Assembly: GCA_003164475.1 (NCBI GenBank)
Contig: PLTL01000207.1
Span: 2,777-11,363, forward strand
Direction of reading: 5' to 3'
DNA: 8,587 bases
DNA from: Candidatus Dormiibacterota bacterium
Lineage (GTDB): Bacteria > Chloroflexota > Dormibacteria > UBA8260 > Bog-877
Shown here: positions 223 through 8,035 of the stretch, in pieces
Layout: each line of letters starts with the position of its first letter
How positions within the stretch are numbered: position 1 is the first letter of the stretch
The notes under the pieces: model-generated
Databases searched by the model: none
What the model was told of the DNA's origin: nothing
Seen by the model: only the letters and a program-made list of their open reading frames with translations
Position numbers and translations under genes: made by a program

Positions 223-1284
223 TCACGGCCCCACCGGAAGGGTCACCCGCACCTCGGTCCCCCGGCCCACCTGGGAGCGGACCTCGAGCTGCCCCCGCTC
301 CAGGTCGGCCCGCTCTCGCATCGAGATCAGCCCAAAGTGGGGCTCGCGGGCCAGCCTCGCCTCCACAGCGGCCAGGTCAAAGCCTTCGCCGTCGTCCTTG
401 ATCACCGCGCTCACCCGCTGCGGCTGGAGGTTGATGAGCACGTCCAGGTTGCGGGCACGGGCATGCTTGCGGACATTGACCAGGGCCTCCTTGACGATCC
501 GGAACAGGGCCCCCTCGGTGGCCGCCGGGAGCCGGCGCTCGGTGCCGATCACCGAAAGCCGGGCCTCGACCCCCTCGGCGTCGCGGAACTCGTTGACCAG
601 CCGGCGCAGGGTCGGGATCACCCCCAGGTCGTCGAGAGTCATGGGCCGGAGGTCGAAGATCAGCTGGCGGGTCTCGTCGAGCACCCCCTTTATGGCCTCC
701 TTGAAGCTGTCCACCTCGGCCTTGGCCCGCTCCGGCTCCCGGTCCAGCATCCGTTCCAGGATCTCGGCCCGGAGCACCAGGTTGGACATCGACTGGGCGG
801 GACCGTCGTGCATATCCCGAGCGATCCGCATCCGCTCCTCGTCGATGGTCTGGAACACCTGGCGCGAGGCGCTCCGGTAACGGGCCAGACCTTCCTCCAG
901 GGTGCTGTCCGGTGGCCGGTGATCCTCCAGCTGCTCGGTGGCGGCCTTCATCAGCGAGTGCCACTGGCGGAGCTGCTTGGCCCAGCTGCGACAATGGGCC
1001 AGCCGCAGCCGGGCCAGGCTCATCTCCGAGCGGAGCGCGAAGCAGCGCCCGACCGCCGCCTCCACCTCGCCGGGGGTGAACCGGCCATGGTCGCGAAGCA
1101 CGTGCCGGCGGACGATGTCGGCATCCTCAAGCCGGTCCCCGACCTGGTCCAGGGCCGCCAGCAACTGCATGACCTCCTCGTCGATGGTCAGCAGCGAGTT
1201 CTCAACTCTCAGCACCTCCTCCTCGAGCACCAACTGCAGCTCGCCGAGAGGAGAGGTGACGACAGGAGCGGGGCGCACGGCCAC
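223..1284 (-). CDS. DegS/LiaS-class cytoplasmic sensor histidine kinase
   Basis: The product is 353 residues with no membrane segment, so it should sense an intracellular or membrane-proximal cue. Residues 1-150 are charged and helical, likely coiled coil, as in the DegS sensor domain. The HisKA_3 dimerisation and phosphoacceptor region follows, with the box ERMRIARDMHDGPAQSMSN and the phospho-accepting His near 159. The C-terminal HATPase_c domain has the N box (KEALVNVRKHA, Asn near 270), the G1 box DDGEGF and the G2 box GLISMRER. HisKA_3 kinases normally phosphorylate NarL/LuxR-type regulators, but none is encoded here, so the partner lies elsewhere. Start choice: GTG codons occur at 1290, 1284 and 1278, none with a good SD. 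I prefer 1284 because TACCCT (1296-1291) sits exactly six bases before it, as in other leaderless genes here. The gene ends 125 bases before the pilin ATG and points the same way, so a regulatory link is possible but not shown. Confidence 0.9.
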   Translation of the reverse strand: MAVRPAPVVTSPLGELQLVLEEEVLRVENSLLTIDEEVMQLLAALDQVGDRLEDADIVRRHVLRDHGRFTPGEVEAAVGRCFALRSEMSLARLRLAHCRSWAKQLRQWHSLMKAATEQLEDHRPPDSTLEEGLARYRSASRQVFQTIDEERMRIARDMHDGPAQSMSNLVLRAEILERMLDREPERAKAEVDSFKEAIKGVLDETRQLIFDLRPMTLDDLGVIPTLRRLVNEFRDAEGVEARLSVIGTERRLPAATEGALFRIVKEALVNVRKHARARNLDVLINLQPQRVSAVIKDDGEGFDLAAVEARLAREPHFGLISMRERADLERGQLEVRSQVGRGTEVRVTLPVGP

Positions 1285-1320
1285 ACCCACAGGGTAAGGT
1301 CTCGTCCTGGGAATTGTCCG
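1285..1320 (-). promoter_or_regulatory. Candidate leaderless promoter of the histidine kinase gene
   Basis: The minus strand has CGGACA (1320-1315), an 18-base spacer and TACCCT (1296-1291), then six bases and GTG at 1284. The -10 is weak apart from its TA and final T. It matches the TANNNT-N6-RTG pattern of leaderless transcripts and is one of the few ways to choose among three clustered GTG codons. Confidence 0.3.
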
Positions 1321-1363
1321 CCCCAGGCCACCACCCGACAGGGTCGCGACCCCGCAACGGCCG

Positions 1364-1419: not shown

Positions 1420-3012
1420 ATGGATCAGGGTCCGGTGACGGCGGCGCCCAGACGGCGCCAGCTCTTGACCTTGCCCCGGTTCTTGGCCCTCACCGGGCTG
1501 CTGGCGGCGATGCTCACCGCCCGTCCCCAGGTGGCCGACCCCGACTTCTGGTGGCACCTGCGCAATGGCCGCATCCTGCTCGCCAGCAATGCCCTCATCC
1601 ACGTGAATCCCTACGCCTTCATGGCGGTCGGGCACCACTGGATCATGCAGGAGTGGCTCAGCGAGGTCTGGTCGGCCGCGCTCATCTCCCTGACCGGCCG
1701 GCTGGGCTTCGTCATCGCGTACGACCTCGTCACCTTCGGCCTCTTCCTCCTGATCTGGCTCCGGGCCAGAGAGCTGGGCCCGGCCCACGGCCTCACCCTG
1801 GGGGTGGGGGTGCTGCTGGCGGGCATGGTCGCCTATCCGATCCTGGGACCCCGCTCCCAGATGCAGTCCTACCTGCTGGCGGCGCTGGTACTGCTGGTGG
1901 TGGACCGGCAGCTGCGACGCGGCGGCCAGGTCGCCTTCTGGCTGCCCCCGGTGTTCCTGATCTGGTCCAACCTCCACTCCGGCTTCATCCTGGGGCTGAT
2001 CCTGCTGGTCGCCATCGTGGCGGTCGAGACCCTGGGCATCGTCCTGGGCCGGCGCTCCGCCGCGGAGCGGGTCCGGATCGGACGGTTGGCCCTCGCCACC
2101 GGGTGCTCGGCGGCCGCCTGTCTGATCAACCCCAACGGCGCCGCCATCGTCGCCTACCCCTTCCAGACCCAGTTCAACAGTGCCCAGCAGGCGCTGATCC
2201 AGGAGTGGCACAGCCCCGACTTCCACGTGGGGGTCCTGGTGCCGCTCCTCTTCTTCATCGTCAGCCTGGGCCTGCTGCTGCTGCGCTACCGCAGAGTCAG
2301 CCTGAGGGACGCGGTGGTCCTGACCCTCTGCCTCTTCCTCACCCTCCAGTCGGTGCGCAACAGCGTCTTCCTGGTGGCGGCAGGGACCCCCGTCTGGATC
2401 AACCTCGCGGAGCGGATGCGCCAGGGCCTGGCCCGGCGCTGGCATCCCCGGCTCCGGCTCCGCCAGCCCCCGCTGGTGGTCCTGCTTGAGCTGCTCGAGA
2501 TGGGCTTCCTGCTGGCCTTCCTCACCGTGCAGGTGGATGCCGGCGGCAGCGCCCGGCTCGACTCCCCCACCTTCATCGGCTCGTTCCCGGTCTGTGCCTC
2601 CAGGTGGCTGGCAGCCGGCCCCCCCGGCCTGCGCATCTTCAACCAGTACGGTGACGGCGGCTTTCTCGCCTACAGCCTGCCCCGGGACAAGGTCTACATC
2701 TTCGGCGACGCCGCCCTCATGGGCGAGCCCCTCCTCTACCGCTACGCCTCGATCATCGACCTCAGCCCCACGTGGCTCACCCGGCTCGACGCCAGCCCCT
2801 CGCAGCTGGTGCTCTTCGAGCGCGGCACCGCCTTCCCCGACGCCCTCCAGCAGGAGCCCAACTGGAAGGTCGTGTACCGGGACCGGCGGGTCGAGGTCTT
2901 CGAGCGCACCAGCCTCCTCGGCTCGCTGCGGCTTCCCCCCAACCCCAGCGCCCGGAGCTGGCACCAGCTGGGTGTGTCGGCCTGCGCCGGCCAGACTCAG
3001 ACCCTCCCCTAG
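1420..3012 (+). CDS. Polytopic membrane protein, GT-C-like architecture, unnamed family
   Basis: The product is 530 residues. It has a short basic N-terminus, a first hydrophobic segment (about 19-38), then a loop with D40-P-D-F-W-W-H-L and a Trp/Glu-rich stretch (HHWIMQEWLSE, 72-82). Many further hydrophobic segments reach about residue 370. Conserved-looking motifs include WSNLHSG (182-188), INPNG (236-240), YPF (246-248), EWHSPDFH (262-269) and RNSVF (313-317). The last 130 residues form a less hydrophobic domain with NQYGDGGFL (408-416) and VYIFGDA (425-431). A D-x-D in the first non-cytoplasmic loop of a protein with about ten helices is the arrangement of GT-C enzymes that use lipid-linked sugars. 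That is an inference by architecture, not a family match. A diverged paralogue lies at 4963-6498. The final 34 residues, after FER496, are a Pro/Ser-rich tail the paralogue lacks, and the stop codon lies in an inverted repeat. It appears to be a single-gene transcript. Confidence 0.85.
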   Translation: MDQGPVTAAPRRRQLLTLPRFLALTGLLAAMLTARPQVADPDFWWHLRNGRILLASNALIHVNPYAFMAVGHHWIMQEWLSEVWSAALISLTGRLGFVIAYDLVTFGLFLLIWLRARELGPAHGLTLGVGVLLAGMVAYPILGPRSQMQSYLLAALVLLVVDRQLRRGGQVAFWLPPVFLIWSNLHSGFILGLILLVAIVAVETLGIVLGRRSAAERVRIGRLALATGCSAAACLINPNGAAIVAYPFQTQFNSAQQALIQEWHSPDFHVGVLVPLLFFIVSLGLLLLRYRRVSLRDAVVLTLCLFLTLQSVRNSVFLVAAGTPVWINLAERMRQGLARRWHPRLRLRQPPLVVLLELLEMGFLLAFLTVQVDAGGSARLDSPTFIGSFPVCASRWLAAGPPGLRIFNQYGDGGFLAYSLPRDKVYIFGDAALMGEPLLYRYASIIDLSPTWLTRLDASPSQLVLFERGTAFPDALQQEPNWKVVYRDRRVEVFERTSLLGSLRLPPNPSARSWHQLGVSACAGQTQTLP

Positions 3013-3411: not shown

Positions 3412-3954
3412 TTAGGGGCGGCTTAACGCCCGGTCCTGGGGATAGAGCCGCCACAGGGTCATCAGCAGCGTGATGAGGATGATCACGTGGAAGCTGGTGC
3501 ACCAGAGGCAGATGACGCGCAGCTCGACCAGCTCGACGAACACCAGGTAGAGGACGGTGAGCATCCCCAGCCCGGCCCAGGCGGCATGGGCCTGACGCAG
3601 CCCGTAGTTGAAGGGCCGCCACAGCTGGGCCAGGGCCAGGGCCAGGCTGATCAGGAAGAAGCCGATCCCGGGGAGAGTGACGGGGATTGAGGTGCCGGGG
3701 ACCAGCGAGTAGACGCTGCTCAGCACCTTGGCGCAGTCGATGGTCCCGCTGCTGCTGCAGGCCAGGGGCGTGTGGGCATAGTGCACCGAGGTCAGGTATC
3801 CGGCCACCCCCAGGCCCAACACCGCCAGGACCGCCAGGACGATGGCCCCGGGCTGGGCCGGCGCCGGAGTTCCCTCAGCGGTCGGCGGCCGGCCGCTGCC
3901 CTCGGCACCGAAGTCCGCCGGGAGCATCCGGCGGCGGCTCCGGGAGCCGCTCAC
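3412..3954 (-). CDS. VKOR-family quinone-dependent thiol oxidoreductase (DsbB-like)
   Basis: The product is 180 residues with a 35-residue polar Pro/Ala-rich N-terminal extension and then four or five hydrophobic segments. All VKOR signature residues are visible: the loop pair Cys66 and Cys74 (CSSSGTIDC), Ser80 six residues after Cys74 as in the family, and the quinone-proximal active site Cys149-L-W-Cys152 followed by T-S-F-H. Bacterial VKOR homologues reoxidise periplasmic or extracytoplasmic thioredoxin-like proteins and pass electrons to quinone. The gene starts with GTG overlapping the TGA of the DUF929 gene (GTGA). Its SD, GGAG at 3966-3963 with an 8-base spacer, lies inside that upstream gene, so translation is probably coupled. 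The CPYC protein just upstream is the obvious partner. Family assignment is firm; the partnership is inferred from gene order. Confidence 0.92.
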   Translation of the reverse strand: MSGSRSRRRMLPADFGAEGSGRPPTAEGTPAPAQPGAIVLAVLAVLGLGVAGYLTSVHYAHTPLACSSSGTIDCAKVLSSVYSLVPGTSIPVTLPGIGFFLISLALALAQLWRPFNYGLRQAHAAWAGLGMLTVLYLVFVELVELRVICLWCTSFHVIILITLLMTLWRLYPQDRALSRP

Positions 3955-4913
3955 TCGCTGGACTCCACCTTCTGGCGCAGCTTCTGGATCATCGCGCTAT
4001 CGCAGACCTTGCCGGGTTTGTTGTCGGTCAGGATGCAGGTGGCGGCGGTGACGTAGTTGGCCCCGCCCAGGACCTCCTGGGCCACCTTCGACGTGGGATT
4101 CCGAAGGTCCTTGGCGACCTGCGACCAGTCCAGGCCCTGCAGAGGAAGCACCGATTTCGCCTCGCTGCCCACCGTGGCGATCCTCCCGGCGTAGTCCAGG
4201 AAGGGGTAGCCGCCGTTGCTGTCGATGCTGGTGAAGGCCGTGGCCACCGCCGGAGGCAGCGACTGCAGGGTCTTGTAGCTCTGTCCCTGGTCGGTGGAGA
4301 CATTGCTCTGGAACTCGCGCCCCACGAAGGCCACATAGGGACTGGTGAAGTTGGCGCCGTGGGCGAAGCTGAAGGTGGCCAGGCTGGCTCCGACCACCGT
4401 CTCATAGACCGACGATCGGATGAGGTGCAGGTCGGACCAGGTGCCGAAGTGGCTCAGCCCGATGATCACAGACCAGCGCTCCAGGGCGCAGTAAGGGCAG
4501 TACTCGGCCCCCACATAGGCGATCTCGGGCAGGCCGCCCTGGCTGAGGGCGGCGGCCTTGTAGGAGGAGGGGATATTCAGGGGGCTGTTGCCGATCGAAC
4601 CGCCCTTGACCGCCTCCAGGGTCTTGAGCGGGATGGTGGTGATCGACTTCACCAGGGAGGCGGGTGCCGCGAGCACCTGGGTGTCCTGCTGGAGGCCGGA
4701 ATTGAGAGTCGACTCGGTGAGCAGGAGCACCACCACGAAGACGGCCACCACCCCCACCACCGCCGAGATCAACCCCCAGGGACGCTTCCCGGACCGGTCG
4801 TTGCGGCGGTGGCCGCGCCCCCGGGACCCGGCCTGCTGGCGGCCCCCACCGGGCTTGCCGGCCAACTTGTCGGACTGCATCTGGCGCCGGGCGGCCATCG
4901 ACTTCTTGGACAT
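3951..4913 (-). CDS. DUF929-family membrane-anchored thioredoxin-like protein (CPYC)
   Basis: The product is 320 residues. A strongly basic 45-residue N-terminus precedes one hydrophobic segment (about 46-65), so it is a signal-anchored protein with its bulk outside the cytoplasm. The DUF929 signature is in the middle: AYVGAEYC-P-Y-C-ALERW, with Cys139 and Cys142 forming a CxxC of thioredoxin/DsbA type. A second cysteine pair, Cys293 and Cys304, sits near the C-terminus. These four are the only cysteines, so an internal relay or a structural disulfide is plausible. It overlaps the VKOR gene by four bases, which supports a DsbA-like oxidant role reoxidised by VKOR. AGGAGA is only two or three bases from the ATG at 4913, a tight spacing. 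The gene starts 49 bases after the preceding gene. A poor -10-like TAAGAT (4951-4946) could give it its own promoter, otherwise it is the fourth gene of the operon. No substrate can be named. Confidence 0.88.
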   Translation of the reverse strand: MSKKSMAARRQMQSDKLAGKPGGGRQQAGSRGRGHRRNDRSGKRPWGLISAVVGVVAVFVVVLLLTESTLNSGLQQDTQVLAAPASLVKSITTIPLKTLEAVKGGSIGNSPLNIPSSYKAAALSQGGLPEIAYVGAEYCPYCALERWSVIIGLSHFGTWSDLHLIRSSVYETVVGASLATFSFAHGANFTSPYVAFVGREFQSNVSTDQGQSYKTLQSLPPAVATAFTSIDSNGGYPFLDYAGRIATVGSEAKSVLPLQGLDWSQVAKDLRNPTSKVAQEVLGGANYVTAATCILTDNKPGKVCDSAMIQKLRQKVESSE

Positions 4914-4962: not shown

Positions 4963-6498
4963 TTAGAGCCTCCTGGGAGCCAGGATCACGGTCGTCGGAT
5001 CACGATACCGGATCGTCCACCCCTGGGCCAAAAGGAAGATGGCTGCGGGGGCGGAGCGTGGCAGCACCCCCAGCCCCACGTGCATCCGGCGGATGGTGCC
5101 GAGGGCCCCGGCGTTGAGGACCTTCAGCTCCCGACACTCCTGGAGCGGCACCCCAGCCAGCGGCAGCGGGTCGTCGACACAGACCAGGCGCGCTGAGGAC
5201 GGGAGCCGGGCGGCCAGGTAGTCACCGAAGCCGGGGGTGGTCAGCCAGGACCCCGCGCCGGGGTGAGCCCTGAGCCAGGAGACTGCCCTCACCGGCAGCT
5301 GCGCCGCGGTTTGGCCGCCGGGCCCTCCCCGGTCCACTAGGCCGGCCCCGTTGGCGGCGAGCAGCGCCAGCACCAGGATGATCGGAACCGCCACCGCCGC
5401 GGCCCACCCCGAGCGCCCGCGGCCGGCACCCTCCCCGGGCGGCAGATCCGGGAGGAGGAGCGGGAGTGAGAGGTACCAGCCGCTCTCCACGGCCGCCACC
5501 ACCAGAAACCAGGCCAGGTAGTTCGACCAGAGCAGCGCCAGCACCACGGTGACCAGTCCCAGATAGCCGTCGGCGCGCCGTATCTGCCGGCCAGCCAGCC
5601 AGTAGCCGACCAGTAGGAGCAGCCCGGCCAGCTCCGCCACCCGCGCACTCCAGGGGTGGAAGTCGATGCTGGACCAGGCGGCCAGCAGCGGGTACTCCCC
5701 CCGCATCCCCAGGCTCAGCGGCAGGTCGGCGATGATCCCCGGGCCCCGGGGGTTCAGTAGCAGTGCCACCGCGGTGGCCGGGATTAGCCACAGCGGGGGC
5801 GCCGGCGGTCCGCCGGGCCGGGCCGTCTCCCGGTTGGCGAAGACCAGCCACCCCCAGATCACCAGCACCGCCAGGCAGGCGTCCGCCTGCAGGTTGGCCC
5901 AGAGGACCACCAGCGCCACCAGGGCGAGCGGGCCCCACCGCGCCCCCCGGCGCAGCTCGGCCCCGACCAGCAAGAGCGCCACCGCCAGGAGGGCGAGGAC
6001 CTCCCGGGGAAGGTCGGTGAGGATCGGCGCCAGCGCCGCCAGGGCCAGCCCGCCCGCCACCACCACCGCCAGGGGGTGGGCCCGGCCCCCGCGCCGGATC
6101 GAGAGCACGAGGCCAAGCCCGAGGAGGGCGCCGGCCAGTCCACCGGAGAGCTCCAGGCCGGCCAGCCCGCCACTCCGATACACCGCGGCCAGGATCACGT
6201 CGGCCAACCAGGCCCGCAGGTCGAGGGACGCTTTGGGCTGGGCCAGGTAGGCGGCGGTCCCGCCCAGGCCGTGCCGGAGGATCAGTTCGCCGTTGGCTAG
6301 GTTCCAGAACTCTGCCCCCGAGGTAGCCGGGTGCAGTCCCGCTGCTGCTCCTCCCAGGATCAGAACGGTGCCCGCCGCCAGCCACCAGCCCCGCCCCGAC
6401 GTGGCCCTGGCCAGCTCCCGGCTCCACCTGGTGGCACGCTGGGCGAGGCCCTTCCGGAGTTGGGCTACCGGCTCGCCCTCAGCCAGGCCCCGGTTCAG
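4963..6498 (-). CDS. Polytopic membrane protein, diverged paralogue of the 1420-3012 product; apparent CTG start
   Basis: From CTG at 6498 the product is 511 residues, close to the 530 of the plus-strand protein. The two align by motif order: EFWNLANGELIL (63-74) with DFWWHLRNGRIL; L-D-L-R-A-WLAD (92-100) with HWIMQEWLSE; WANLQAD (200-206) with WSNLHSG; LLNPRG with LINPNG; AWSSIDFH (274-281) with EWHSPDFH; GFGDYLAARLP with GDGGFLAYSLP; and a C-terminal YRD followed by a beta-like end. The D-x-D of the first loop is reduced to G-A-E and the WWH is lost, so activity may differ or be absent. The frame has no ATG, GTG or TTG between 6753 and 6183. A start at 6753 would add 85 residues antisense-like in composition and buried in the GT2 gene. 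CTG at 6498 makes a CTGA overlap with the GT2 stop, with GGTGA four bases upstream. I therefore prefer it, at moderate confidence. Confidence 0.75.
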   Translation of the reverse strand: MNRGLAEGEPVAQLRKGLAQRATRWSRELARATSGRGWWLAAGTVLILGGAAAGLHPATSGAEFWNLANGELILRHGLGGTAAYLAQPKASLDLRAWLADVILAAVYRSGGLAGLELSGGLAGALLGLGLVLSIRRGGRAHPLAVVVAGGLALAALAPILTDLPREVLALLAVALLLVGAELRRGARWGPLALVALVVLWANLQADACLAVLVIWGWLVFANRETARPGGPPAPPLWLIPATAVALLLNPRGPGIIADLPLSLGMRGEYPLLAAWSSIDFHPWSARVAELAGLLLLVGYWLAGRQIRRADGYLGLVTVVLALLWSNYLAWFLVVAAVESGWYLSLPLLLPDLPPGEGAGRGRSGWAAAVAVPIILVLALLAANGAGLVDRGGPGGQTAAQLPVRAVSWLRAHPGAGSWLTTPGFGDYLAARLPSSARLVCVDDPLPLAGVPLQECRELKVLNAGALGTIRRMHVGLGVLPRSAPAAIFLLAQGWTIRYRDPTTVILAPRRL

Positions 6499-7241
6499 CG
6501 GGTCACCCGGCCGGCCTGGCCCCTTCCCAGCCGGCGGCGCAGCCCCACCAGGTCGGTGAGCATCCGCCCCCCGTCCCGCAGTGAGCTGACGGTGGTCCCG
6601 CCCACGTTGCGCCAGACCACCGGGACCTCGGCGACCCGGATGCCCTGCAGCCGGGCCCGGAGCAGCACCTCGGCGTCGAAGCCGAAACCCGGGGTCTCCA
6701 GGGAGGTGAAGCAGACGGTCGCGGCCTCCTCGGTGAACAACTTGAAGCCGCACTGGCTGTCCTTGATCCCAGGAAGCACCAGCCGCTGCAGTACCTGGTT
6801 GTAGGTCTTGCCCATGAGCTCGCGGTGGAGCGGCTGATGCCGCTCCACCTGAGACTGCGGCAGCGCTCTCGACCCGATTGCCACCCCGGCGCCCGCGTCC
6901 AGCTCCCGCTCCAACTTGGCCATCTCGGAGAGGGGCGTGGAGAGGTCGGCGTCACTGAAGAGCCGGCGCCGACCGGTGGCGGCCAGCATCCCGGACCGGA
7001 CCGCCGAGCCCTTGCCCTGGTTGCGCTCGAAGGAGATCAGCCGGAGCTGGGGCCAGCTGGCCTGCGCCTTCTCCACCAGCAGGCGGGTCCGATCCCGGCT
7101 CCCGTCGTCGACCACCACCACCTCGTAGGGCAGCCGGGTCCCATCGAGGAAGCCACGGATCAGCCGCAGCGACGGCGGGAGCCGCTCCTCCTCGTTGTAG
7201 GCGGGAACCACCAGGCTGAACGCGACCGGCTCCAGGCTCAT
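6495..7241 (-). CDS. GT2 family glycosyltransferase, dolichyl/polyprenyl-phosphate sugar synthase-like
   Basis: The product is 248 residues, a complete GT-A fold of GT2 type. It has the nucleotide-binding start SLVVPAYNEEERLP (9-22), VVVVDDGSRDRT (41-52), NQGKGSAVRSGM (74-85), the metal-binding D97-A-D99 in FSDADLSTP, GSR (123-125), DSQCGFKLF (161-169) and GFGFDAEVL (185-193). The QCGFKLF and GFGFDAEVL motifs with a DAD box are typical of the ALG5/dolichyl-phosphate beta-glucosyltransferase branch, which moves a sugar from a nucleotide donor to a polyprenyl phosphate on the cytoplasmic face. The exact sugar cannot be read from sequence. No C-terminal membrane helices are present, so it is probably peripheral. 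The ATG overlaps the wecG-type TGA (ATGA), and its own TGA overlaps the next gene, so it is tightly coupled on both sides. The SD is weak, a G-run about 8 bases upstream. Confidence 0.9.
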   Translation of the reverse strand: MSLEPVAFSLVVPAYNEEERLPPSLRLIRGFLDGTRLPYEVVVVDDGSRDRTRLLVEKAQASWPQLRLISFERNQGKGSAVRSGMLAATGRRRLFSDADLSTPLSEMAKLERELDAGAGVAIGSRALPQSQVERHQPLHRELMGKTYNQVLQRLVLPGIKDSQCGFKLFTEEAATVCFTSLETPGFGFDAEVLLRARLQGIRVAEVPVVWRNVGGTTVSSLRDGGRMLTDLVGLRRRLGRGQAGRVTR

Positions 7242-8035
7242 CCGGCACGCCCCCCGCGCCTAGCTCTGACCACCTCCCAGAAGAAGGTCGACCCGCGCAG
7301 CATCCGCGGCAGCCGCCAGGGCTGGCGGGCCAGGCGGAACGACCACTCCAGCCCGGCCTGGCGCAGCAGCGCGGGAGCCCTCGGGACCCGGCCGGCGAGG
7401 TAGTCGAGGGTGCCGCCCACCCCGATGGCCACCCTGGCCCCGGTCTTCTCCAGGTACCGCGCCAGCCAAAGGTCCTGCTGGGGCACGCCGAAGGCCACGG
7501 CCAGTACCACCGCACCGGAACCCCTCACCCGCTCGCAGATCGCGGCCGCCTCGTCGTCCGCGGGTGAGCCGCTCCAGGCCCCACCCAGCTCCAGCCCGGG
7601 ATGTGACCTGAGCAGGGCCCGGCCGGCAGCCTCGGCGACTCCCGGGCTGGCACCGAGCAGGAAGATGGGGCACCGGTGCTGCCTGGCCAGTTCGGCCAGG
7701 TCCTGGAGGAAGTCGGCGCCCGCGATCCGCTCCGGGACGGGGGCCCCCAGCCTCCGGCTGGCCCAGACCACCCCGGCGCCATCCGGGAGAACCAGCCCGG
7801 CGCGCCGGATCGCCTCGGCCAGCTCGGGCTGGCGGCGCGCCTGCATCACCATCTCCGGGTTGAGGGTCACCACCTGCAGCGGGGGCCGCTCGCCCCGGAT
7901 CGCCACCTCGCATCTCCCGAGCGCCTGCTCCCGGGAGCACCGGTCCAGCGGAACCCCCAGCAGCTCGAGCCGGGGGGCGCCCGTGGCAGCCGCACCGGTC
8001 AGGGGGGACGTGGAGGAGACGCCGGCCCGGGGCAC
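7238..8035 (-). CDS. WecG/TagA/CpsF-family glycosyltransferase
   Basis: The product is 265 residues of the GT26 family, which transfers an N-acetylhexosamine(uronic) sugar to a polyprenyl-diphosphate-linked acceptor in enterobacterial common antigen, teichoic acid linkage unit or exopolysaccharide synthesis. Family motifs are complete: VVTLNPEMVMQAR with Thr57, LPDGAGVVWASR with Asp85, PERIAGADF with Arg103, FLLGASPGVAE, VAFGVPQQDLW with Gln187, and GVGGTLDYLAGRVPRAP followed by GLEWSFRL. The spacing of Thr57, Asp85, Arg103 and Gln187 equals that of the catalytic residues described for TagA (T37, D65, R83, Q167, recalled from the literature) with a constant offset of 20. The C-terminus is rich in Arg and Trp, as expected for the membrane-docking tail. 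The GTG at 8035 has no SD but lies exactly six bases after TATACT, so a leaderless mRNA is likely. It is the first gene of the envelope-glycan operon, 74 bases after atpC. Confidence 0.92.
   Translation of the reverse strand: MPRAGVSSTSPLTGAAATGAPRLELLGVPLDRCSREQALGRCEVAIRGERPPLQVVTLNPEMVMQARRQPELAEAIRRAGLVLPDGAGVVWASRRLGAPVPERIAGADFLQDLAELARQHRCPIFLLGASPGVAEAAGRALLRSHPGLELGGAWSGSPADDEAAAICERVRGSGAVVLAVAFGVPQQDLWLARYLEKTGARVAIGVGGTLDYLAGRVPRAPALLRQAGLEWSFRLARQPWRLPRMLRGSTFFWEVVRARRGGRAG

What the first reader, a model, noticed from the sequence alone, without database searches (positions are those of the whole stretch)
4963..6498. Diverged paralogue pair of unnamed membrane proteins, one with an eroded D-x-D/WWH motif
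The proteins at 1420-3012 (plus) and 4963-6498 (minus) share the same order of motifs over their whole length, including a C-terminal GDGGFL/GFGDYL region. The plus copy keeps D40-P-D42-FWWH and the WSNLH, NPNG and HSPDFH motifs. The minus copy has G-A-E-FWN, WANLQ, NPRG and SSIDFH. The first-loop D-x-D is a hallmark of GT-C glycosyltransferases, so one copy may be catalytic and the other altered or a partner subunit. The eroded copy is the one embedded with two lipid-linked-sugar genes. I know no described function for this family.
Basis: partly seen in the sequence, partly recalled or inferred. Interest (0 to 1): 0.72.

Follow-up and report, generated by a model that had tools for sequence, protein, structure and literature searches.

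The report
Dead partner of a membrane glycosyltransferase
Bacteria of the group Dormibacterota carry two sister membrane proteins built like the enzymes that attach sugars outside the cell; one keeps the residues expected of a working enzyme, while its steady companion has lost them and yet is kept by evolution, which suggests an inactive partner subunit.

Summary
The proteins at 1420-3012 (+, "A") and 4963-6498 (-, "B") are one family over 450 columns. Both model as GT-C folds, nearest mostly to STT3/AglB/PglB oligosaccharyltransferases. The telling residues are D42, E262 and R313 rather than the D-x-D as such; weak profile matches place them on STT3's first-loop Asp, TIxE Glu and a conserved Arg. 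Among rows under 99% identity, D42 and E262 are both present in 226 of 226 other family members, in 16 of 26 tandem sister B copies and in 0 of 56 window-type B copies. A tree without the catalytic columns makes the 17 sampled B copies one clade (100/97). Of 110 genomes of the class, 43 have A, 42 have B and 39 have both. B is under purifying selection (w about 0.26 in two pairs). Best reading: B is a conserved, catalytically dead GT-C paralogue that works with A. Catalysis by A and a heteromer are inferred, not shown. Neither has a Pfam or NCBIfam family. Precedent: PIGU of GPI transamidase. A new variant of a known kind.

The parts
1420..3012 (+). A: intact STT3-like GT-C protein (530 aa)
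   Evidence: ATG with GGAGG upstream
1537..1545 (+). A, codons D40-P41-D42 (first external loop; D42 faces STT3 D57)
1852..1860 (+). A, codons R145-S146-Q147 (GPRxQM motif, loop taken as the place of STT3's second DxD)
2203..2205 (+). A, codon E262 (IxEWxSPxFH, counterpart of the TIxE Glu)
2356..2358 (+). A, codon R313 (counterpart of a conserved STT3 Arg)
4963..6498 (-). B: paralogue of A without the catalytic residues (511 aa, CTG start)
6313..6321 (-). B, codons S60-G61-A62 in place of D40-P41-D42
5677..5679 (-). B, codon A274 in place of E262
6495..7241 (-). GT2, like polyprenyl-phosphate-sugar synthases; 4-base overlap with B
7238..8035 (-). WecG/TagA/CpsF glycosyltransferase
3951..4913 (-). 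DUF929 protein with CPYC, thioredoxin-like
3412..3954 (-). VKOR-family protein
223..1350 (-). HisKA_3 histidine kinase, divergent neighbour of A (start approximate)

Best explanation
A is a working polytopic glycosyltransferase of the GT-C superfamily, STT3-like in build: D42 on the first external loop acts on the acceptor, E262 on a later external loop helps to form the site, and R313 holds the lipid phosphate of a polyprenyl-linked sugar. B is its ancient paralogue. It keeps the membrane scaffold and the outer C-terminal domain but has lost those residues step by step, so it cannot do the same chemistry. It is kept because A needs it: most likely B pairs with A and holds the acceptor or donor, or steadies A, as a structural subunit. 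Shown: kinship, fold models, residue loss, one B clade, co-occurrence, purifying selection. Inferred: catalysis by A, deadness of B, physical pairing, and the donor (a polyprenyl-phosphate sugar from the neighbouring GT2).
For: Fold. Kinship A to B. Site mapping onto STT3: first loop, TIxE Glu and Arg; the first-loop match beat 100 of 100 column shuffles for each of two profiles, the TIxE match has no such control. Rows under 99% identity, in the order A, other members, sister B, window-type B: D42 and E262 both 136/136, 90/90, 16/26, 0/56; R313 139/139, 88/90, 16/26, 1/57; R145 138/138, 78/90, 18/26, 0/57; while W182 139/139, 90/90, 26/26, 56/57 and W482 139/139, 80/80, 24/24, 56/56 stay. B one clade: 17 sampled rows 100/97, 32 rows 97. 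A and B both in 39 of 46 genomes with either; in 36 of the 39 on one contig, 23 of them with a gap of 80 bases or less, 13 at 1.6-7.2 kb. Selection on B: w 0.262 and 0.267 in two pairs over 494 codons; A 0.136 in the first of these pairs. Precedent: PIGU has the GT-C fold, its EL1 DxD is replaced by SSW, and with PIGT it scaffolds GPI transamidase (PMC12653191, passages).
Against: D42 is still Asp in 7 of 56 window-type B copies and both acids survive in 16 of 26 sister copies, so not every B need be dead. B has invariant polar residues of its own (R95, E268, H281, R286, E289, D426, C440, C455 in the 26 rows of A1), which could mean new chemistry. B's stretch 265-281 is modelled with pLDDT under 50. 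The STT3 mapping rests on weak local profile hits (E 0.0004 to 0.013) and B's own profile shows none. A lacks STT3's second DxD and WWDYG, so its chemistry may differ. R313 and R145 are not wholly constant outside A.
Confidence: 0.62

Rival explanations
1. B is still an enzyme, rebuilt: other conserved polar residues took over and it transfers another sugar or acts on another acceptor.
For: B has its own strongly conserved positions, among them R95, E268, H281, W283, R286, E289, D426 and the pair C440/C455, and sits in an operon-like run with two glycosyltransferases.
Against: The first-loop Asp, the TIxE-like Glu and the Arg are lost together (49 of 56 window-type rows have no acid at 42 or 262, R313 stays in 1 of 57); E262 faces mostly A or L (37 and 17 of 59 rows).
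Confidence: 0.2
2. B binds lipid-linked sugars or polyprenyl phosphate without catalysis, as a carrier, flippase-like or sensing protein that works without A.
For: GT-C scaffold kept; GT2 and WecG genes next to it in the window clade.
Against: The Arg that faces STT3's conserved Arg is gone in 56 of 57. Linkage to A is tighter than to GT2/WecG (39 of 42 B genomes hold A; GT2/WecG found beside 2 of 26 sister B loci).
Confidence: 0.12
3. A and B share the GT-C fold but neither is a glycosyltransferase.
For: No Pfam or NCBIfam family, no solved relative by sequence.
Against: D42 and E262 are constant in 226 of 226 non-B rows and fall on STT3's site.
Confidence: 0.08
4. B is a decaying duplicate without function.
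For: Long branch (1.56 changes per column) and faster change than A in the pair G006-G148.
Against: Open frames, w about 0.26, many invariant positions in 46 rows, presence in 42 of 110 genomes.
Confidence: 0.03

Closest known systems
STT3 / AglB / PglB oligosaccharyltransferases (PF02516)
   Different: No PF02516 match, GPRxQM in place of the second DxD, no WWDYG; by my count fewer TM helices than STT3's 13.
PIGU of GPI transamidase
   Same: GT-C fold whose EL1 DxD is replaced (SSW) and which scaffolds another activity (PMC12653191, passages); GPI transamidase U chains are among the matches.
   Different: Eukaryotic; its partner PIGT is not a GT-C paralogue (recalled); sequence kinship not tested.
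Paired GT-C enzymes such as Pmt1-Pmt2 and EmbA-EmbB
   Same: Two GT-C proteins in one complex; both kinds are among the structure matches.
   Different: That both members of those pairs are active is recalled, not checked here; B has lost the site.
DPY19 C-mannosyltransferase
   Same: Best Foldseek match of B (7zli_A, E 1.2e-05).
   Different: 12% identity; residues of the GT-C site lost in B.

Membership tests
GT-C superfamily | GT-C fold of the membrane part | tested here: met
   A: 27 Foldseek matches at E<=0.001; B: 10; by title they are OST, DPY19, ALG12, ArnT or AftA chains, or chains of OST-holding translocon assemblies not named in the title; models pLDDT 90.7 and 84.0
GT-C superfamily | acidic residue on the first external loop, A | tested here: met
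   D42 in 136 of 136 A rows, facing STT3 D57
GT-C superfamily | acidic residue on the first external loop, B | tested here: not met
   Ala in the window; Asp in 7 of 56 window-type rows
GT-C superfamily | sugar transfer from a polyprenyl-linked donor | not testable with these tools
   needs biochemistry
STT3/AglB/PglB (PF02516) | match to the Pfam model | tested here: not met
   A and B no hit; none in the 30 rows of A2, a part of A4's 107; 0 of 110 class genomes
STT3/AglB/PglB (PF02516) | TIxE/SVSE Glu on EL5 | tested here: met
   A7 profile puts its E273 (A's E262) on E370 of TIAE in STT3; weak, E 0.0011; lost in B
STT3/AglB/PglB (PF02516) | second DxD on EL2 | tested here: not met
   GPRxQM on the loop before H147-167 in A, taken as EL2
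STT3/AglB/PglB (PF02516) | WWDYG in the C-terminal domain | tested here: not met
   NQYGDGG in A, GFGDYL in B after a strand
A-B family | A and B homologous over their length | tested here: met
   hhalign 99.7, 450 columns
pseudoenzyme | catalytic residues lost under purifying selection | tested here: met
pseudoenzyme | no activity | not testable with these tools
   needs biochemistry
obligate partner subunit | genes occur together and linked | tested here: met
   39 of 46 genomes with either; 36 of 39 on one contig
obligate partner subunit | physical complex | not tested
OST3/OST6-like redox subunit (DUF929 + VKOR) | dedicated to the transferase pair | tested here: not met
   DUF929 next to B in 13 of 15 window-clade genomes, but 11 of 27 sister-B genomes have neither DUF929 nor VKOR and genomes without A-B (G264, G085, G275) carry the pair

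The most novel reading that the evidence does not exclude
A bacterial heteromeric transferase, built like an oligosaccharyltransferase but from a family without Pfam or NCBIfam entry, in which an ancestral pair of active GT-C paralogues became an active subunit and a dead one; the dead subunit holds the acceptor, and in the window clade a thioredoxin-like DUF929 protein and VKOR serve the acceptor's disulphides as OST3/6 does.
Probability: 0.15. Interest if true: 0.82.

Novelty: new variant of a known kind. Interest (0 to 1): 0.6.

Why it matters
The one GT-C pseudoenzyme that my paper searches turned up is PIGU. Here living genomes hold intermediate states, from B copies with both acids to copies with neither, beside a constant intact paralogue, so one can ask directly in what order a membrane glycosyltransferase loses catalysis and gains a partner's role. 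It also flags a large family without Pfam or NCBIfam entry, matched in 99 of 201 genomes drawn from the phylum (taken to be Chloroflexota), as STT3-like transferases.

Tried and rejected
Rejected: B as a pseudogene. A or B as members of PF02516. DUF929-VKOR as a fixed part of the A-B system. 'Every tandem pair has a dead member': 15 fetched regions of the phylum outside the class hold 31 copies, and all 31 keep D42 and E262 in the columns printed. GT2/WecG as a universal companion (2 of 26 sister loci).

Led nowhere: the A profile against PDB sequences, 0 matches; B profile against STT3, nothing; a pooled profile (the window's A and 253 other non-B rows) against STT3 was weaker (E 0.013) than A4 or A7. 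One of the 30 rows of A2 has a weak DUF6044 hit (E 0.0016). The shuffle loop printed nothing usable and was redone. In one search the best hit of A7 was the TIxE region, with columns set by the first row, it was the first loop (residues 32-94), so the shuffles test the first-loop match only. Paper searches found no paper; the listings of 68 (12 of 170), 69, 70, 71, 89 and 90 show none on this family or on a dead bacterial GT-C partner; most subscription papers are not held.

Weak points told: my first count (250 of 250, 16 of 26, 0 of 57) put four A copies among the other members and kept near-duplicates; the recount without row removal gives 145/145 A, 105/105 other, 16/26, 0/57; under 99% identity 136/136, 90/90, 16/26, 0/56; under 90% identity 114/114, 86/86, 12/20, 0/52. 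Left out of these groups: 14 second readings of sister B copies, one 198-aa fragment of L207, and one short row (L180, Glu at 262, no letter at 42). A and B were called by score limits that I chose (A4 500 bits or more, with two cut-off genes at contig starts, 447 and 295 bits; A6 330 or A3 200 bits or more); score at most 13 candidates a genome and print capped lists. 120 of 347 and 120 of 696 hits are listed; A4 holds 106 of the 120 plus the window's A. In one search other B pairs give w 0.33, 0.42 and 0.53 but run past the gene into overlapping frames (617-763 codons); G003-G002b (99% identical) gave 2.0 on almost no changes; A pairs give 0.14 to 0.36.

Full report
What is there. The 8,587-base window carries, on the minus strand, atpC, a WecG/TagA/CpsF glycosyltransferase, a family-2 glycosyltransferase, the protein of the finding (B, 4963-6498), a DUF929 protein and a VKOR protein; on the plus strand the paralogue (A, 1420-3012); and a histidine kinase divergent from A. 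WecG-GT2, GT2-B and DUF929-VKOR each overlap by four bases. Most of the close relatives that bear a name are called Dormibacterota or the like. A has no Pfam hit up to E 10, B only two chance-level ones, and neither has an NCBIfam hit.

One family. BLASTP alone is weak (27% over 244 aa, E 0.004), but profiles of 46 B and 107 A sequences align over 450 columns with probability 99.7. The alignment puts S60-G61-A62 of B on D40-P41-D42 of A.

Active site. In AglB the metal is held by Asp47 of the first DXD and by Asp161/His163 of the second, with Glu360 of TIXE taking part through water; conserved arginines face the lipid phosphate (PMC8342417, passages). Five STT3 proteins found in other genomes of the phylum made a reference profile. 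The A profile meets it at the first loop, D42 on D57, H46 on H61, R48 on R63 (E 0.00038). A profile of 18 distant family members meets it at EL5, its E273 (A's E262) on the Glu of TIAE and its R325 (A's R313) on the Arg of RFAYY (E 0.0011). With columns set by the first row, both profiles match best at the first loop (E 0.00059 and 0.00072) and none of 100 column shuffles of either scored as high; the TIxE match has no such control. A pooled profile gave only E 0.013. That the Arg is AglB's phosphate Arg is inferred. A has GPRxQM, not DXD, on the loop before its H147-167, and no WWDYG, so it is STT3-like but not a member of PF02516. The loop with E262 lies between helices that I count as TM7 and TM8, where PimE, ALG6 and ArnT have their donor arch (PMC12041525, passages; the count is mine).

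Loss in B. Counted on rows under 99% identity. D42 and E262 both: A 136 of 136, all other family members 90 of 90, tandem sister B 16 of 26, window-type B 0 of 56; neither place acidic: 0, 0, 3 and 49. Among window-type rows E262, R145 and Q147 are lost in 57 of 57 and R313 in 56 of 57, while W182 (56 of 57), P390, G413 and W482 (56 of 56 each) remain. E78 is Glu in 0 of 26 sister and 0 of 57 window-type rows, R48 is Arg in 0 of 26 and 0 of 56; but neither is constant in the other members (69 and 37 of 90). D42 survives in 7 of 56 window-type rows. The picture is a graded loss, fullest in the window's clade.

Descent. With the catalytic columns removed, a careful tree of 41 rows unites 8 window-type and 9 sister B copies (100/97), each of these sets being a clade, and 9 A copies as another (98/97); a quick tree of 86 rows agrees (97 for 32 B rows). 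Letter make-up differs in some rows and the window-type branch is long (1.56), so the gene position is a useful second line of evidence.

Linkage. Chance overlap by the hypergeometric is 1e-21, which ignores relatedness. Of the 39, 36 have both on one contig: 23 as tandem genes with gaps of 80 bases or less, 13 in the window's spaced arrangement at 1.6-7.2 kb. In the B-only genomes G001, G209 and G222, B begins 7 to 567 bases from a contig end, and G222 shows a partial A directly upstream. Of the A-only genomes, G212 has A 72 bases from a contig end, G230's contig ends soon after A (inferred from the locus length), G223 has a short weak fragment beside A and G235 a partial B-like match on another contig. 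The histidine kinase stands beside A in 23 of 26 sister loci; the other three are short pieces without a full A.

Selection. In the pair G006-G148, w is 0.262 for B (494 codons) and 0.136 for A (545 codons); G006-G005 gives 0.267 for B. B is kept but changes faster in that pair.

Mechanism. A most likely transfers a sugar or oligosaccharide from a polyprenyl carrier to an acceptor outside the membrane. The GT2 next to B matches models of polyprenyl-phosphate-sugar synthases (ArnC-type, PgfS, AglJ, PpgS), all far below their cut-offs and beside other GT2 models such as EpsD and PgaC/IcaA; this would fit a polyprenyl-phosphate donor, but the neighbour is constant only in the window's clade: GT2 lies upstream of B in 13 of 13 loci whose contig goes on, and WecG in the 10 that reach it, against 2 of 26 sister loci. 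B keeps scaffold and outer domain without the site, so a structural or substrate-holding partner is the simplest reading. PIGU shows that such a role exists.

Redox neighbours. DUF929 was placed in the thioredoxin-like clan (PMC3091736, passages) and the window copy has CPYC. A has a conserved Cys pair (C392 143 of 145, C522 144 of 144) and window-type B another (C440 and C455, 58 of 58 each). This recalls the OST3/6 oxidoreductases (recalled). Against a dedicated role: DUF929 occurs in 59 and VKOR in 46 of 110 genomes, with and without A-B, and 11 of 27 sister-B genomes have neither; in G236 and G240 they lie on other contigs than B.

Breadth. The A profile hits 99 of 201 genomes drawn from the phylum, which I take to be Chloroflexota; named relatives of the distant profile include Anaerolineales, Chloroflexi and one Pyrinomonadaceae. 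Tandem pairs occur outside the class with the site intact in 31 of 31 fetched copies, so pairing may be older than loss.

Noticed in passing
L188-L202: Fifteen other regions of the phylum hold two (one three) intact family members side by side, some divergent; pairing without erosion.
   Followed up: partly
window 223-1350 and loci: A histidine kinase divergent from A is kept in 23 of 26 sister loci, hinting at regulation of A-B.
   Followed up: no
window 3412-4913: DUF929 (CPYC) and VKOR overlap as a redox pair that also occurs elsewhere in the class without A-B.
   Followed up: partly
A C392/C522, B C440/C455: Each paralogue has its own conserved Cys pair in or near the outer domain; possible disulphides.
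   Followed up: partly
P0022, P0109: Relatives in records named Micrarchaeaceae/Micrarchaeia archaeon although the other named relatives are Dormibacterota; perhaps mislabelled bins.
   Followed up: no
window 6495-6498: B seems to start at CTG overlapping the GT2 stop (CTGA).
   Followed up: partly
L227 462-2081: B of G222 has also lost the first-loop motif (ETGSWAS), maybe a separate loss within the sister group.
   Followed up: no
B residues 265-281: This stretch of B is highly conserved in sequence yet modelled with pLDDT under 50.
   Followed up: no
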